A stretch of DNA of 64,000 nucleotides from Gemmatimonadaceae bacterium (GTDB lineage Bacteria; Gemmatimonadota; Gemmatimonadetes; Gemmatimonadales; Gemmatimonadaceae): contig JABAQJ010000007.1 in the NCBI GenBank assembly GCA_019186945.1, forward strand, positions 186,001 to 250,000, written 5' to 3'. Shown piece by piece: positions 53,290 to 60,223 of this stretch (position 1 is the stretch's first letter; each line of letters begins with the position of its first letter). The translations under genes and the position numbers were made by a program. Below the pieces are notes generated by a model that did not search any database, was not told where the DNA came from, and worked only from the letters and a program-made list of their open reading frames with translations.

Positions 53290-53433
53290 GTTCACACCTG
53301 TTGGATACGGGCCAGTGCCCGGTGACGAGCACAAGGTAGCGTAGTATCCGTACCGGTCGTGGACGTCTCGAGTCGCTGGCTGGAGCCGGTCCACCGATGC
53401 GCGGTCGTCGAGCGCGCGGTACTATTGGCCCCC

Positions 53434-55386
53434 ATGCAAACACGCGAACTGACACTCCGCGGGCTGATTCTCGGCGCCCTGATCACGACCGTTTTCACGG
53501 CCGCCAACGTGTACCTCGGGCTCAAGGTTGGCCTCACCTTCGCGTCGTCGATTCCGGCGGCGGTGATCTCGATGGCGATTCTTGCGGCGGTGAAGGATTC
53601 GTCGATCCTCGAGAACAACATCGTGCAGACCGTGGCATCGGCTGCGGGAACGCTGTCGGCGATCATCTTCGTCCTGCCCGGACTGGTGATCGTCGGATGG
53701 TGGACGCAGTTCCCGTTCTGGCAGTCGTTCCTGATCTGCGTGAGCGGCGGCGTCCTGGGAGTGGTGTTCACGATTCCTCTCCGGCGTGCGCTCGTCACCA
53801 CGTCCGACCTGCCGTATCCGGAGGGTGTTGCAGCAGCGGAGGTGCTCAAGGTCGGATCGGGGACGAGGGGGGAGACCCGGGACGAATCCGGTGAAGCGCG
53901 TGAAGGCTTGAGAGCCGTGATCCTTGGCTCCGTGATGTCCGCGGGGCTGGCGATCGTTGCTGCGACACGGCTCATCGGTGCCGAACTCAATGGGTTCATC
54001 CGGCTGGGAGCGACGGCTTCAACAGGCTACAACATCGCCTGGTCCCTGGCGCTGCTTGGTGCCGGGCACCTCGTCGGGCTGTCCGTCGGGATGGCGATGC
54101 TCGTGGGGCAGGTGATCTCGTGGGTGATCGCGGTGCCCATCCTAACGTCGATGCAGCCGGCCGCCGATGGCGTGAGCCTGGCGGCGCACACGAGCGCGAT
54201 CTGGCGCACGCAGGTCCGGTTCATCGGTGCGGGGACGATTGCCGTGGCTGCCATCTACACCCTTGCAAAGCTCGCCAAACCGGTGGTGAGCGGGCTGGTA
54301 TCCACTCTCAAGGCATCGCAGGCGCAGGCGACTGGCGACGATCGAGATCGCGACCTGTCGCCCTCATGGATACTGGCACTGACCGTTATCTGTCTGGCGA
54401 TCTCCGCCTGGCTGGCGTACACGTTCGCGAAGTCGACAGTGCTGGCGCCTCACGCCGGCGTGCTCACGGCCATCGCCGTACCGTTCGTCCTGCTCGCCGG
54501 CTTTCTGATCGCCGGTGTGTGCGGATACATGGCCGGGCTGATCGGCGCCTCGAACAGTCCAATCTCGGGTGTTGGCATCCTGTCGATCGTGCTGTGCGCT
54601 TCCGTCCTGGTGCTGGCCGTCGCGCCGACCGACGAGACACGACCGGCACTGGTGGCGTTTGCGCTGTTCGTGACGGCGATCGTGTTCGCCTGTGCCACGA
54701 TATCGAACGACAATCTGCAGGATCTCAAGACCGGGCAGCTTGTTGGCGCATCGCCCATGCGGCAGCAGATCGCACTGATCGTCGGCGTTGGGGCTGGGGC
54801 GGCGGTGATCCCGTCGGTGCTCAACCTGCTGGCCAGGGCGTACGGTTTCGCCGGCGCCGCGAACGTTGGTGTCGTGGCGCCCAATCCGCTTCCGGCGCCG
54901 CAGGCGACGCTGATCGCGGCACTGGCGCAGGGTGTCATCGGTGGTGCGCTCGAATGGAAGATGATCGGCATCGGCTTGCTCGTTGGCGTGGTCCTGATCC
55001 TGCTGGACGGGGCGCTAGGCGCCATGAAGAAACTGCGGATCCCGCCGCTGGCCGTGGGTATCGGCATTTACCTGCCGATGTCGGCGACGTTTGCCGTGAT
55101 CGTGGGAGCGGTAATCTCCCGGTGGTACGACGGGCGTATCCGCACGATGCCGAACCCGGAGCGTGCGGATCGGCTGGGCACCCTGGTGGCATCCGGCCTG
55201 ATCGTGGGTGAGAGCATCTGGGGCGTGATCAATGCCGGGCTGATCGTCGGGCTATCGACCGACGCGCCGATCGCGATAATGCCGGAGGGTTTTGCGCTGG
55301 CGCCGATTCTTGGAGCGGCCGGCTTCGTCGCGGCTGTGGTGTGGCTCTACGGCTGGATGCTGCGTCGTTCGAGAGCCGTGCGGTAG
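53434..55386 (+). CDS. OPT-family oligopeptide transporter
   Basis: A 650-residue membrane transporter with about 14-16 spans. The N-terminus ELTLRGLILGALITTVFTAANVYLGLKVGLTFASSIPAAVISMAI and the DLPYPEGVAAAEVLKVG block are hallmarks of the OPT superfamily, EspB/YgiE-like branch. It should import small peptides or metal-chelate complexes using protons. The start ATG 53434 opens the first span. It is divergent from dinB and converges on the cysteine-rich gene with 15 bases between stops. Confidence 0.9.
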   Translation: MQTRELTLRGLILGALITTVFTAANVYLGLKVGLTFASSIPAAVISMAILAAVKDSSILENNIVQTVASAAGTLSAIIFVLPGLVIVGWWTQFPFWQSFLICVSGGVLGVVFTIPLRRALVTTSDLPYPEGVAAAEVLKVGSGTRGETRDESGEAREGLRAVILGSVMSAGLAIVAATRLIGAELNGFIRLGATASTGYNIAWSLALLGAGHLVGLSVGMAMLVGQVISWVIAVPILTSMQPAADGVSLAAHTSAIWRTQVRFIGAGTIAVAAIYTLAKLAKPVVSGLVSTLKASQAQATGDDRDRDLSPSWILALTVICLAISAWLAYTFAKSTVLAPHAGVLTAIAVPFVLLAGFLIAGVCGYMAGLIGASNSPISGVGILSIVLCASVLVLAVAPTDETRPALVAFALFVTAIVFACATISNDNLQDLKTGQLVGASPMRQQIALIVGVGAGAAVIPSVLNLLARAYGFAGAANVGVVAPNPLPAPQATLIAALAQGVIGGALEWKMIGIGLLVGVVLILLDGALGAMKKLRIPPLAVGIGIYLPMSATFAVIVGAVISRWYDGRIRTMPNPERADRLGTLVASGLIVGESIWGVINAGLIVGLSTDAPIAIMPEGFALAPILGAAGFVAAVVWLYGWMLRRSRAVR

Positions 55387-55401: not shown

Positions 55402-57423
55402 TCAGCCGCGCCGGACGCGGCGGCCAAGAATGGAGTGTGACACGATCGCTTCCGGTCGACCGCCGCCATGCGGCACGGCCAGCACGATTCTGCGCGTCCA
55501 GCGGAGGCCGAGTTCGACGATTGCGTGCCTGGCATCGCGTGCAGCACGCCATCGCTTCACCTTGCTTGCCCTATCGCCGATCGTGTGGCTGATGGCTGCA
55601 AGAATTGCGTTAGGGAGATCGTCGACTTCGACCAGGCGGCTGCACGTCGCGCATACTGGCGCACCCGGACGGTAGTCCGCGATGCAGATGCCGCGGCCGC
55701 AATTCGCGCATTCGCGTCGGTGATCCTTGCAGTGCAGCCTGCCGCACGAGGGGCAGGCTTCGGTTCCCTGAAGCGTGAAGACACCTCCGTCGACGTGGCA
55801 CACGCTCCGGTGTGGCTCGCACGCAAGCGCGCCTCTTACGTCGCGCACCGGCGCCAGGTGATGATGACAATGGACTGCGTTGTCCACTATGCAGCTGGCG
55901 GAATGAGCGACGCAGACGTTGTTCGCGCAGGTGACGCAGCCGGAAACTTCATCCGAGGCCAGGACTGCGTTTGGTTCGTGGACGCACGCCCCCCGGTGTT
56001 TCTCGCAAGTCAACCGACGTGACCTGTCGGTACGCCTCAGGTGCCTGGAGCAGTGCACCATATTGTCCACGTCGCAGTGCGACTGATGCCGCTCGCAGAC
56101 GTCGCGCCGGCAACTCGCGCAGCCCGTTACCTCGTCAGGGCCAACGACCTCGTTCCTGCCGCCCTCGCATGTGCGAACGCAGTCGCCGCAAAGCCGTCGT
56201 GAGCCCCGAGGGGCGTCCGGATGGGAAAGCGTTGCGTGCTGGTCGCAGATGACCCGTGCGCAATGCGCACAGGGACTCAAACAGGCCGAACAGGCGGCGT
56301 GACCGCTCTCGTCACACACGCCCTCGTGGCGCGAACAATGCCGCTGTCCACAGCACAAACAACTGCGGGCGTGAGCGGAGCATGCCGGCGCATTGTCGAC
56401 ATGGCAGCTCGAAATCCCGTGCTCTCGACAACACGCGTCGGCGCACACGCTGCATGTCCTGGAGCAGTTGGGACAGGCCACATGATCGTGGAGACACACG
56501 AGCAAGGCTGATGGTGCCGCTCCACACGTCGGGCAGCTGACAGTCCATGCTTCGCTTCCCGCCAGCATCCGCTGTGCAGTGAAGGAACCGCGATGTCCGG
56601 TTGTGCTTTCTATTGCCCAATCGGCTCGTTGGACCGCCACCTCCCACTCTGCCAACTGCACAGGATGTACCGTGGCACGCACCTGGTGGCGTTCCGTCTC
56701 CTCTCGGGCGCGACGTTGATGCTCGGCCTCAATCGCCCGCCGTGTTGCGTTATCCGGAACCTGCGTCCCTCGGCTACCGGCGTCGTCCAGCAACGTTGTG
56801 TAGTAGCGCTCGATGCGGCCGAGTTCGTGCCTGAGCGCGTTCTGTGACCTCATCCCAAGGTCGTCGATAGCCGGCCGAAGTTGCTGCTCCAGGCTGGAAA
56901 GCATCAACTGGACCAGTTCTGCAGCAGGGCGCATCGGCGCAAGCACCAGTCGATGCCAGCCTGCCGAAGGATCCCCAGCCACGTCGTCCAGGGAGTCAAG
57001 AGCGCGAATCAACTCGCTTCCCAGCGCTGTACCTGTGGACAGATCGAACACCTCGCTCTCGGCCAGGTGTTCCTTCACTTCGGCACCGGCGCGAATCACT
57101 ACGCGCGCCGTCAGGCGCCCTACGCGATGACGCTTCACCACGACATGGGCTGGCAGCGCCCGGCCATTTTCAACCGGGAGCGGAACAGGAGGCGAGAGGT
57201 CGTTGAGGTTGGCGGCGCAGCCCACGCGGCCACGCATCAGCCGTGTCCCACGGCGACGGATCGCAGCGATAAGCTGGCTAACGAACGGACTCCCCACGAT
57301 GGCCAATTCCGCGTTCGCGTCTTCACGCGCGGCCTCCACGGAGAACGCAAGCCGAACAGCCGAACGCCGCGCGAACGCCGAATAGGGTGACACAGAGACA
57401 GCGGACTGCCCGCGTACCGGCAC
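55402..57423 (-). CDS. Giant cysteine/histidine zinc-finger array protein
   Basis: A 673-residue protein I cannot assign. Residues 1-270 are soluble and helical; the first part (AELAIVGSPFVSQLIAAIRRRG) and RHELGRIERYYTTLLDD recall the C-terminal region of SNF2-type helicases, but only loosely. From about 297 to 600 lie some 46 cysteines and many histidines arranged as repeats of C-x2-C-x4-C-x2-H, then C-x-VDN-x3-C-x2-H (clear at CADACCREHGISSCHVDN, CRRDVCERHQSHCDVDN and CANNVCVAHSASCIVDN). These look like cross-braced zinc knuckles. The last 60 residues contain KRWRAARDARHAIVELGL. The start GTG 57423 is the first available. Confidence 0.72.
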   Translation of the reverse strand: MPVRGQSAVSVSPYSAFARRSAVRLAFSVEAAREDANAELAIVGSPFVSQLIAAIRRRGTRLMRGRVGCAANLNDLSPPVPLPVENGRALPAHVVVKRHRVGRLTARVVIRAGAEVKEHLAESEVFDLSTGTALGSELIRALDSLDDVAGDPSAGWHRLVLAPMRPAAELVQLMLSSLEQQLRPAIDDLGMRSQNALRHELGRIERYYTTLLDDAGSRGTQVPDNATRRAIEAEHQRRAREETERHQVRATVHPVQLAEWEVAVQRADWAIESTTGHRGSFTAQRMLAGSEAWTVSCPTCGAAPSALLVCLHDHVACPNCSRTCSVCADACCREHGISSCHVDNAPACSAHARSCLCCGQRHCSRHEGVCDESGHAACSACLSPCAHCARVICDQHATLSHPDAPRGSRRLCGDCVRTCEGGRNEVVGPDEVTGCASCRRDVCERHQSHCDVDNMVHCSRHLRRTDRSRRLTCEKHRGACVHEPNAVLASDEVSGCVTCANNVCVAHSASCIVDNAVHCHHHLAPVRDVRGALACEPHRSVCHVDGGVFTLQGTEACPSCGRLHCKDHRRECANCGRGICIADYRPGAPVCATCSRLVEVDDLPNAILAAISHTIGDRASKVKRWRAARDARHAIVELGLRWTRRIVLAVPHGGGRPEAIVSHSILGRRVRRG

Positions 57424-57532
57424 CGAGAAAGCGGCTCCGATAACCCGGAGTGCCGGCGCAGCCAGCCCGGATTCGGGGCTGCGCGCGGCTCGATCTCCGT
57501 GTCCGTCCGCCGCCGGGCGCTCCCGCCGCGAA

Positions 57533-60223
57533 TCAATCGCTCCGGATCGCCACCAGGGGAGACACCCGGGATGCCCGCCGCGCCGGCAGATACGCCGACA
57601 GCGACGCCGCCACCAGCATCCCTACACTGACAGTGATGAAGCTGACGGCATCCGCCCGTGTCACTCCGTACAGAAGCGTGCCCAGGAGACGCGACAGCGC
57701 CCATGCACCCACCGCTCCGATGCCGACACCGATCGCACCCAGCGTCAGACCCGACCGAACGACGAGACCAGTCACCGTTCCGCGGCCCGCACCCAGCGCC
57801 ACCCGAATCCCGATCTCTTTCGTCCGCTGCGCCACGAGGTAGCTGACCACGCCGTGCACCCCGATCAATGCCAGCAGGACGGTCACCCCCGAGAAGACCC
57901 CCAGGACGATCATAGCGAACCGGCTGGCGCTTACCGACCTCAAGATGGTGCGAGACATCGGTTCCACTCCGTACACGGCCAGTTGAGGATCCACGCTCCA
58001 GATCGTGCGTTGCAGTTCGCCAGCCATGCTCTCCGCCGGTCGCTCGGTTCGAACCAGCAACACGCCGCTGTTTAGCGGCGCCTGCGCGAGCGGGACGTAG
58101 ATCGCTGCCGGGACCGGCTCGCGAAGCCCCTTGATCCGCTCGTCGCGAATGATCCCCACGATGGTCCTGGGCGCACACCAGAACGCAATTTGCGCCCCAA
58201 GCGCCTCGCGATTGGCGAAGTAGCGCTTTGCCGCGGTCTCGTTGATCATGGCGACTAGCGGCGCATGGCCATCGTCCGCGTCGCTCAGTTCGCGCCCGCG
58301 GGCGAGTGCGCTACCGACAGTCTCCACATACCTCGGCGAGACGATTCGAACGGAGATCTCGGGATACGTCGACGCCTCGCCTTCGCGCCCCACGATCAGC
58401 CACGAATTGGTGAACCCCGGATCGAGCGGGTGCGCCCCCGCGATCGCCGCGCTCTGTACGCCCGGAATGCTCGCGGCACGCTCCAGCAGAGTATTGTTGA
58501 AGTTGACGATCTCCGGCTGGTTGGGCCACTTGGCGAAGTCGCGCGGATAGCGCGCTAGCGGCAGCTGGTATTCCGCCTTGACCACGGTTGCGGTACTGAA
58601 GCCGGGATCGGTGCTCATCAGATTCCGGAAGCTGCGCACGAGCAGCGCCGCGCTCACCGATAGCATCACCGAGAGAGCGACGGCCGCCACGACGAACAGT
58701 TCGCGAGGGGTCCGCCTCCGTCCACCGCCGGTCGCGACTGCTTCTCCCTTGAGCGCATGTACCACGTCCACGCGGCGCGCCTGCCACATGGGCACGGAAC
58801 CGAACGCCACGCCGATCGCCAGCGACGCAGCCACAGCGGCCCACGCCAGTCGCGCGTCGATCCGCACTTCGTTCAGGCGCGGAATGTCGGCCGGGGCCAG
58901 CGACAACAGCGACTGGAGCAACAGCACGGCGCAGCCGATCCCGATCGCTCCTCCCACGATGCCCAGCGTCAGCGATTCCACGAGCAACTGCCTCCCCACA
59001 CGTCGCGTGGTCGCGCCGAGGGCGCTGCGGATCGCGATCTCGCGCATCCGTGTGGTGCCGCGCGCAAGCAGCAGGTTGGCCACATTCACCACGGCCACCA
59101 GCATCAACAATCCGACTGCGCACAGCAACAGATACAGCAACGGACGGCTGGCACCGAAAACCACGTCGCCGAGGGGCTCGACGAAGACTCCGCGATCGGC
59201 GTTGTCGTTCCGGTACGTTCGCTCGAGATCCGCGGCAATCCCCGTCAGCTCCGACTGCGCCGATGGCACGGTCGACGCCGACGCCAGCCGGCCGAGTACC
59301 AGGAACGGATGGTTGGAGCGCGGGAACTGCTCGGCAGAAGCCTGCAGCGGAATCCACACGCCCACCTCGCCCTCGCCCGAGTACGGCGCGTGGTATGCCG
59401 CGCGCTCGTTGATCTGGTCGATGCCGAAGTCTCCGTCCGAAGGGACCACTCCGATCACCTCGTAGCGCACGTCGTCCACATCGATCGTCTGGCCGATCGC
59501 ATCCGGCGATCCCGCAAACCGCGATCGCCATAGCCACTCGGCAAGCACGGCGACCCTGGGTCCGCCCGCGTTCGACTCGGCAGCCGAAAACGTCCGCCCG
59601 ATCAAGGGACGGAGGCCCGTCAGCTGAAAGTACTTGTCCGACGTCGCGACGCCGGCGAGTCTCAACGGCTGATCATCCGGAAATGCGAGAGACATGTCGG
59701 TCGCCACGAACTCGGCTATCGTGGACAGGGCGCGGGAGCGTTCGCGGAAATCGACCACGTCCGGATAGGACGACGGCTCTCGTGCGGTCTGACTCTTTCG
59801 ATCCGTCTCCCAGACCACAACGAGCCGGTCGGCGTCCCTGAAGGGCAGCGGCCGCAACAACACGCGGTCGACGACACTGTAGATCGCCGTGCTGGCGCCG
59901 ATCCCGAGCGCCAGCGTGGCCACTACCGTCAGGGCAAACCCGGGTGCACGCCGCATCTGGCGGAATGCGTACGCCACGTCTCCACGCAACTCGTCGAACG
60001 TGGCCGCGCCACGCGCCTCGCGCACGCCCTCGCGTACGTCGTCGTCGTTACCGAACGCCAGGCGCGCGCGCCTGAGTGCCTCCGGATGCGGCACGCCCGC
60101 GCGCTCGAGCTGCGCCGCTTCCATTTCCAGGTGAAACCGCATCTCCTCGGCCGTCTCGCGATCCCGGCGGGCGCGGTTCAGGATCCCGTCCAGACGACCG
60201 CGAATGTCAGTCCACAGGCTCAT
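57533..60223 (-). CDS. ADOP-type FtsX/MacB-like ABC permease
   Basis: An 896-residue permease of the duplicated orphan-permease group. The N-terminal 80 residues carry the helical segment with EEMRFHLEMEAAQLERAGVP that marks this group. Then come two MacB/FtsX-like units, each with a periplasmic domain and spans: LTVVATLALGIGASTAIYSVVDRV starts the first. The C-terminal end has RTKEIGIRVALGAGRGTV and GLTLGAIGVGIGA. There is no ATPase gene adjacent. It follows padR by one base, the usual pairing; PadR probably controls it. Confidence 0.9.
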   Translation of the reverse strand: MSLWTDIRGRLDGILNRARRDRETAEEMRFHLEMEAAQLERAGVPHPEALRRARLAFGNDDDVREGVREARGAATFDELRGDVAYAFRQMRRAPGFALTVVATLALGIGASTAIYSVVDRVLLRPLPFRDADRLVVVWETDRKSQTAREPSSYPDVVDFRERSRALSTIAEFVATDMSLAFPDDQPLRLAGVATSDKYFQLTGLRPLIGRTFSAAESNAGGPRVAVLAEWLWRSRFAGSPDAIGQTIDVDDVRYEVIGVVPSDGDFGIDQINERAAYHAPYSGEGEVGVWIPLQASAEQFPRSNHPFLVLGRLASASTVPSAQSELTGIAADLERTYRNDNADRGVFVEPLGDVVFGASRPLLYLLLCAVGLLMLVAVVNVANLLLARGTTRMREIAIRSALGATTRRVGRQLLVESLTLGIVGGAIGIGCAVLLLQSLLSLAPADIPRLNEVRIDARLAWAAVAASLAIGVAFGSVPMWQARRVDVVHALKGEAVATGGGRRRTPRELFVVAAVALSVMLSVSAALLVRSFRNLMSTDPGFSTATVVKAEYQLPLARYPRDFAKWPNQPEIVNFNNTLLERAASIPGVQSAAIAGAHPLDPGFTNSWLIVGREGEASTYPEISVRIVSPRYVETVGSALARGRELSDADDGHAPLVAMINETAAKRYFANREALGAQIAFWCAPRTIVGIIRDERIKGLREPVPAAIYVPLAQAPLNSGVLLVRTERPAESMAGELQRTIWSVDPQLAVYGVEPMSRTILRSVSASRFAMIVLGVFSGVTVLLALIGVHGVVSYLVAQRTKEIGIRVALGAGRGTVTGLVVRSGLTLGAIGVGIGAVGAWALSRLLGTLLYGVTRADAVSFITVSVGMLVAASLSAYLPARRASRVSPLVAIRSD

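What the first reader, a model, noticed from the sequence alone, without database searches (positions are those of the whole stretch)
55402..57423. Unassigned protein with about 46 cysteines in a 300-residue zinc-knuckle array
Repeats of C-x2-C-x4-C-x2-H alternating with C-x-VDN-x3-C-x2-H run through the C-terminal half. The density and regularity far exceed usual bacterial zinc proteins. The periodic VDN between ligand pairs suggests a specific tandem fold. The N-terminal region loosely recalls SNF2-helicase C-terminal parts, so a nucleic-acid or protein-scaffold role is possible. It sits alone between an OPT transporter and a permease.
Basis: partly seen in the sequence, partly recalled or inferred. 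Interest (0 to 1): 0.65.

Follow-up and report, generated by a model that had tools for sequence, protein, structure and literature searches.

The report
Orphaned zinc-array partner of SNF2 motor
This gene encodes a protein that in its relatives is made together with a DNA-motor enzyme and carries a long row of small zinc-binding repeats; here the motor gene is gone, and the two-gene pair, which also occurs in salt-loving archaea next to a DNA-cutting enzyme, may belong to an undescribed defence machine.

Summary
The 673-residue minus-strand ORF at 55402-57423 has 46 cysteines within residues 297-600 and ten units of C-x2-[C/D]-x4-C-x2-[C/H/D] (0.38 expected after shuffling). It matches no Pfam, NCBIfam or PADLOC family, but it is a real family: 27 of 395 phylum genomes searched carry it. 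In 26 of 26 non-duplicate relatives with upstream sequence, an SNF2 helicase gene lies directly in front. The N-terminal half models as the C-terminal arm of the SNF2 ATPase RapA, so the pair looks like a split RapA/HmaA-type helicase whose arm gained a zinc array. Haloarchaeal plasmids carry the same pair; all three with an array have 8-35 units in a 15-residue period and an Mrr-like nuclease gene downstream. The window copy has lost the helicase and about 40 N-terminal residues, yet keeps 89 of 89 invariant positions. Best reading: an orphaned subunit of a two-part SNF2 motor, probably for defence. Defence is inferred: most Gemmatimonadota copies do not sit among defence genes.

The parts
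55402..57423 (-). ORF of the array protein, 673 aa, GTG start; about 40 residues shorter at the N-terminus than relatives
56605..57402 (-). N-terminal half (residues about 8-273): RapA-type post-helicase arm, an alpha+beta domain followed by a sheet with two long helices inserted
   Evidence: AlphaFold2 model; Foldseek; VIA-align 2; description of the RapA/BrxHII layout in PMC12839542 section 27
55642..56535 (-). zinc-ligand array (residues 297-594); motif units start at residues 324, 340, 355, 385, 435, 450, 496, 511, 557 and 572
   Evidence: 44 of 44 Cys/His positions invariant in the other rows are kept; pLDDT about 90 over most of it
55405..55626 (-). small beta-rich C-terminal tail (residues 600-673)
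   Evidence: weak profile match to the haloarchaeal tail
57424..57532 (.). interval holding the break: homology to relatives stops at about 57420, and no helicase or N-terminal remnant is found upstream
   Evidence: tblastn of 5 helicases and 26 partner N-termini against the window
57533..60223 (-). MacB/FtsX-like permease now occupying the upstream side, same strand (neighbour, not part of the module)
53359..55386 (+). OPT transporter, convergent neighbour (not part of the module)

Best explanation
The protein is the second subunit of a two-gene SNF2 machine. Its N-terminal half is the accessory arm that in single-chain RapA/HmaA/BrxHII-type helicases follows the ATPase core; here it is a separate polypeptide that has gained a tandem array of short zinc-binding units. 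The likely mechanism is that the arm docks on the SNF2 motor made from the gene in front, and the array forms an elongated zinc-stabilised rod that grips nucleic acid or a protein partner while the motor translocates on double-stranded DNA. The module most likely acts against foreign DNA, calling a nuclease (an adjacent Mrr-like enzyme in haloarchaea) when triggered. In this genome the motor gene and the first ~40 residues of the arm have been deleted or displaced, leaving an orphaned but still intact array protein. Shown by computation: family, ORF, operon partner in relatives, conservation of ligand positions, loss of the partner here. Supported by modelling: the RapA-type arm. Inferred: zinc binding, physical docking, the DNA-gripping role and the defence role.
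For: SNF2 helicase directly upstream in 26 of 26 non-duplicate loci with upstream sequence, 21 of them with the nearest start codon overlapping the helicase stop by 4 bases (starts were chosen as nearest to the helicase end, which favours short offsets). The helicase has SNF2 and Helicase_C domains and is closest to DrmD, BrxH, DpdE, HmaA and RapA. Foldseek of the window model: ranks 1-4 are RapA, best E 1e-3. VIA-align 2: RapA first for both models, Z 7.5 over 237 residues (model 6-306 to RapA 697-967) and Z 7.6 over 131 residues (model 41-262 to RapA 795-968). Haloarchaeal relatives: N-half profile match E 1.3e-8 over 228 columns, outside the array; SNF2 upstream; Mrr_cat gene downstream in 3 of 3 array-bearing loci. 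Type III restriction-modification genes directly upstream in G012 and G028. Window copy: 89 of 89 invariant positions kept; terminal branch no longer than its neighbours (0.446 against 0.429 and 0.498); partner not found in its genome, where the best SNF2 match is a distant HmaA.
Against: Plain Foldseek with the full-length L018 model did not list RapA in its top 50, and all VIA Z values are below 8, with an unrelated OspA row at Z 7.3 next to RapA for the window model. Sequence profiles of either N-half do not find RapA in PDB sequences. RapA_C gave 0 of 9 genomes. The profile comparison with the single-chain HmaA of this genome is collinear with its post-helicase region but not significant (P 0.083). 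In Gemmatimonadota, defence genes flank few copies: of 141 neighbours scanned, the Type III RM families matched two members each, and GajB-like UvrD helicases two. DUF499, the hallmark of Hma/BR systems, is in 1 of 27 array-bearing genomes, and that one is the window's own.
Confidence: 0.6

Rival explanations
1. The pair is a split RapA in function as well as in form: it remodels or recycles RNA polymerase, and the zinc array binds the transcription machinery.
For: RapA is the nearest solved relative of both the helicase and the arm. RapA_C was found in 0 of 9 genomes searched, so a RapA-like job could be vacant. Most Gemmatimonadota copies lie among ordinary genes.
Against: Patchy occurrence, 27 of 395, is unusual for a transcription housekeeping factor; plasmid carriage with an Mrr-like nuclease in haloarchaea; helicase scores against the RapA model are far below its curated cut-off (about 180-201 against 576).
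Confidence: 0.15
2. The window copy is simply a decaying remnant: recently truncated and with no function left.
For: Partner gene and N-terminal part of the arm are missing; none of the 26 relatives with upstream sequence has lost the helicase.
Against: 673 codons open; 89 of 89 invariant positions and 44 of 44 Cys/His kept; no long branch. This only shows that any decay is recent or absent. No genome of the same genus was available to date the loss.
Confidence: 0.3
3. The orphan works without its own motor, for example by docking on another SNF2 protein such as the HmaA of this genome's complete Hma system, or as a free DNA- or protein-binding zinc rod.
For: Array conserved despite loss of the motor; a complete HmaA/B/C set lies on the same contig about 108 kb away.
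Against: Part of the presumed docking arm is missing; HmaA already has its own post-helicase region of some 500 residues (one search aligns the helicase core only to residue 656 of 1198); no genomic link between the two loci.
Confidence: 0.1

Closest known systems
RapA (E. coli SNF2 ATPase that recycles RNA polymerase)
   Same: SNF2 core followed by a two-domain alpha+beta arm; RapA is the top structural match of the arm and the top solved relative of the partner helicase
   Different: One chain in RapA, two genes here; RapA has no zinc array in the region matched; no RapA_C family match
Hma / DUF499-centred BREX-related (BR) systems and BrxHII helicase
   Same: Helicase scores highly against HmaA, BrxH and DrmD models; PMC12839542 section 27 describes an inactive nuclease-like domain plus a sheet with two long helices between strands 4 and 5, which fits the model; array-less haloarchaeal partners sit near DUF499 or DUF1156 genes in 5 of 8 loci looked at
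   Different: The published helicases are described as single chains; array-bearing genomes lack DUF499 except the window's own; no methyltransferase in the two-gene unit
Cross-brace/treble-clef zinc domains (FYVE, PHD, LIM)
   Same: Repeated C-x2-C and C-x2-H ligand pairs; weak second-look matches, Z 2.3-4.0
   Different: One continuous chain of short units with a 15-residue period and 7 to 35 units, not separate 50-60-residue domains
Mrr-type restriction systems
   Same: Mrr_cat gene directly downstream in 3 of 3 array-bearing haloarchaeal loci
   Different: No Mrr family among the listed top families of the Gemmatimonadota neighbours

Membership tests
RapA | SNF2 ATPase core in the functional unit | tested here: met
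   Partner helicases: SNF2-rel_dom E 3.6e-34 and 7.2e-37, Helicase_C. Absent in the window's own locus
RapA | RapA_C sequence family (PF12137) | tested here: not met
   No Pfam match to the window protein up to E 10; 0 of 9 genomes, while the control E. coli is positive
RapA | Layout of the post-helicase arm | tested here: met
   RapA first, collinear; scores are modest (Z below 8) and one search did not list RapA in its top 50
RapA | Binding of RNA polymerase | not testable with these tools
   needs biochemistry
Hma / BR system | Linked DUF499 ATPase | tested here: not met
   1 of 27 array-bearing genomes, and there about 108 kb away
Hma / BR system | Single-chain helicase with post-helicase region | tested here: not met
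   Helicase of about 700 aa followed by the separate array gene
DISARM DrmD | Curated score of NF038318 / NF038317 | tested here: not met
   Partner helicases score 232-234 against 950 and 187-206 against 610
CCHC zinc knuckle | C-x2-C-x4-H-x4-C (recalled) | tested here: not met
   Ligand order is C-x2-[CD]-x4-C-x2-[CHD]; no Pfam match
FYVE/PHD/LIM type zinc domains | Cross-brace zinc fold | tested here: inconclusive
   Second-look Z 2.3-4.0; zinc sites were not placed in the model
Type III restriction-modification | mod and res genes linked to the pair | tested here: not met
   Present beside G012 and G028 only; no part of the unit elsewhere

The most novel reading that the evidence does not exclude
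A two-subunit SNF2 defence machine, shared by Gemmatimonadota and haloarchaeal plasmids, in which an expandable 15-residue zinc repeat (7 to 35 units) serves as the part that recognises or grips the invader, its length and sequence varying as in other repeat-based recognition proteins.
Probability: 0.2. Interest if true: 0.8.

Novelty: new variant of a known kind. Interest (0 to 1): 0.5.

Why it matters
SNF2 motors with RapA-like arms drive several defence systems, and the arm is thought to sense or bind (PMC12839542, section 27). A natural split, in which the arm is a separate protein fused to a length-variable zinc array, offers a way to test what the arm does: motor and arm can be expressed, swapped and shortened independently. 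The same design in a soil bacterial phylum and in haloarchaeal plasmids, in the latter beside a nuclease, suggests an undescribed defence module. No family in Pfam, NCBIfam or PADLOC covers the array protein.

Tried and rejected
Family libraries gave nothing for the array protein. Sequence profiles against PDB sequences gave only chance RING/ribosomal hits for the array and coiled-coil or chance hits for the N-halves. Viral contigs and phage records hold no relative at the sensitivity used. The hhalign match of the whole family profile to the Halocatena protein covers mainly Cys-rich columns and could be composition-driven, so I relied on the N-half comparison instead. The C-terminal tails match only weakly (prob 30, P 5e-4). 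Pfam and PADLOC tallies of neighbours used 141 of 300 neighbour ORFs listed (215 within 4.5 kb): small ORFs were left out, and four long proteins and one short one were dropped to meet the residue cap. The subtilase gene seen near 8 loci was considered as a third partner and set aside because it is absent elsewhere and changes side. Base composition does not mark the gene as foreign: a lower GC3 than its partner gene is shared by the array genes of L008 and L009. Papers: search listings showed no description of a split SNF2 helicase with a zinc-array partner; PMC12839542 was read in section 27 and in passages (outline), PMC8501970 in passages. Other papers were seen as listings only.

Full report
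What is there. Forty-six of its 47 cysteines fall in residues 297-600. The unit C-x2-[CD]-x4-C-x2-[CHD] occurs ten times against 0.38 expected in shuffles of the same residues. No Pfam, NCBIfam or PADLOC model matches up to E 10, and PDB sequences give nothing significant.

It is a real family. Whole-genome searches found it in 6 of 59 relatives (own genome included), 16 of 295 class members and 27 of 395 phylum members. The scan of genome contigs returned 21 loci: 18 titled Gemmatimonadetes or Gemmatimonadaceae, two Betaproteobacteria and one Rokubacteria. The last three are metagenome bins, and I did not test for misbinning. No relative was found in viral contigs. In a 27-row alignment most invariant columns of the array are Cys or His. 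Array length varies by whole stretches: one group lacks a segment of about 60 residues and has 38-39 instead of 44-47 cysteines; units number 7-11 over all 27 rows.

It has a partner. In all 26 non-duplicate loci with upstream sequence, an SNF2 helicase gene precedes the array gene (in a few the contig holds only the helicase's end). In 21 of 26 the nearest start codon overlaps the helicase stop by 4 bases; starts were picked by closeness to the helicase end. Twelve aligned helicases of about 700 residues share 82% mean column identity and keep the ATPase motifs (ADEVGLGKT, DEAH, motif names recalled). Helicase models of DISARM, BREX, Dpd, Hma and RapA all match, far below curated NCBIfam cut-offs.

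The window copy has lost the partner. The array protein starts about 40 residues inside its relatives. tblastn of five helicases and of 26 relatives' N-termini finds homology only from about 57420 downward and no helicase remnant in the window. In the rest of the genome the best matches to the partner are partial; the strongest lies in a large ORF that proved to be HmaA of a complete Hma system at C2:120.5-133 kb. Even so, 89 of 89 positions invariant in the other rows, 44 of them Cys or His, are kept. The terminal branch (0.446) is like those of its neighbours L008 (0.429) and L009 (0.498). The loss is therefore recent, or the protein still does something; no genome of the same genus was available.

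Structure. AlphaFold2 models: window protein, mean pLDDT 80, about 90 over most of the array, pTM 0.46; full-length relative L018, mean pLDDT 82, pTM 0.46. The array is predicted as a row of short strand-turn-strand units. Foldseek with the window model put four RapA entries first (E 1e-3 to 1.1e-2). With the L018 model plain Foldseek did not show RapA in its top 50, but re-alignment of its 1000 best chains put RapA first: Z 7.5, rmsd 8.8, 237 residues, model 6-306 onto RapA 697-967. For the window model RapA was again first (Z 7.6, rmsd 7.2, 131 residues, 41-262 onto 795-968), with an unrelated OspA row close behind (Z 7.3) on the C-terminal tail. These scores alone are modest; together with the SNF2 gene in front they make the RapA-type arm the best reading. 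[quoted passage not shown] The models show such a pair of long helices between strands (residues 167-217 and 225-245 in the window protein). A profile comparison with this genome's single-chain HmaA aligned collinearly with its post-helicase region but was not significant (P 0.083).

Archaeal relatives. tblastn against plasmids found two haloarchaeal plasmids from a Gemmatimonadota query and five from the Halocatena protein. The N-halves of the two groups match outside the array (E 1.3e-8, 228 columns). Halocatena, Haloferax and Halorhabdus carry SNF2, array protein and an Mrr_cat gene in that order; in Haloferax the array frame is not in the PLSDB table and was read from the DNA. Their arrays have 8, 35 and 28 units with a dominant spacing of 15 residues, the spacing also seen within the Gemmatimonadota arrays. 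By eye, the Mrr active-site residues look intact in Halocatena and eroded in the other two. Halorientalis and Natrinema have the arm without the array. Relatives of the array-less partner lie on 17 plasmids, three of them the array-bearing ones. Of eight further loci looked at, seven list SNF2 upstream, five have DUF499 or DUF1156 genes within 4 kb, and none lists a restriction endonuclease directly downstream; hypothetical proteins there were not examined.

Is it defence? For: the haloarchaeal nuclease, the DUF499/DUF1156 company of the array-less form, and Type III restriction-modification genes beside two Gemmatimonadota copies. Against: among 141 neighbours scanned, defence models matched few and the commonest Pfam families were response regulators and subtilases; DUF499 is in 1 of 27 array-bearing genomes. 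I put the defence role at somewhat under one half and the split-motor reading at about 0.85; the combined statement gets 0.6.

Verdict. This is an orphaned copy of an otherwise operon-bound subunit, a new variant of the RapA/HmaA kind of SNF2 machine with an expandable zinc array.

Noticed in passing
L116 3531-15948 (G000:C2:120530-132947, outside the window): The window's genome carries a complete Hma (BREX-related) set: HmaA, HmaB and HmaC match their PADLOC models over most of their length, with two PDC-S01 proteins between them.
   Followed up: partly
L088 7991-11725 and L090 8998-12282: Haloarchaeal array proteins with 35 and 28 zinc units (146 and 115 Cys), far longer than the bacterial ones, with similar repeats that suggest duplication.
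   Followed up: partly
L008 292-5776 and L009 351-5729: Type III methyltransferase, RhuM-like protein and Type III restriction enzyme directly upstream of the SNF2/array pair in two genomes.
   Followed up: partly
L012 7409-8767, L021 2827-4203, L026 2937-4265 and others: A subtilase gene lies near the pair in 8 loci, on either side; shared synteny or a functional link is open.
   Followed up: no
L099 and L100 (G173:C11:234783 and 259852): One genome of another family holds two copies of the pair about 25 kb apart.
   Followed up: no
L022, L023, L025: Copies in metagenome bins titled Betaproteobacteria and Rokubacteria; transfer or misbinning not tested.
   Followed up: no
L088 11728-12681 and L090 12552-13304: Mrr-like genes downstream of the array look eroded at the active site by eye, unlike the Halocatena one.
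   Followed up: no
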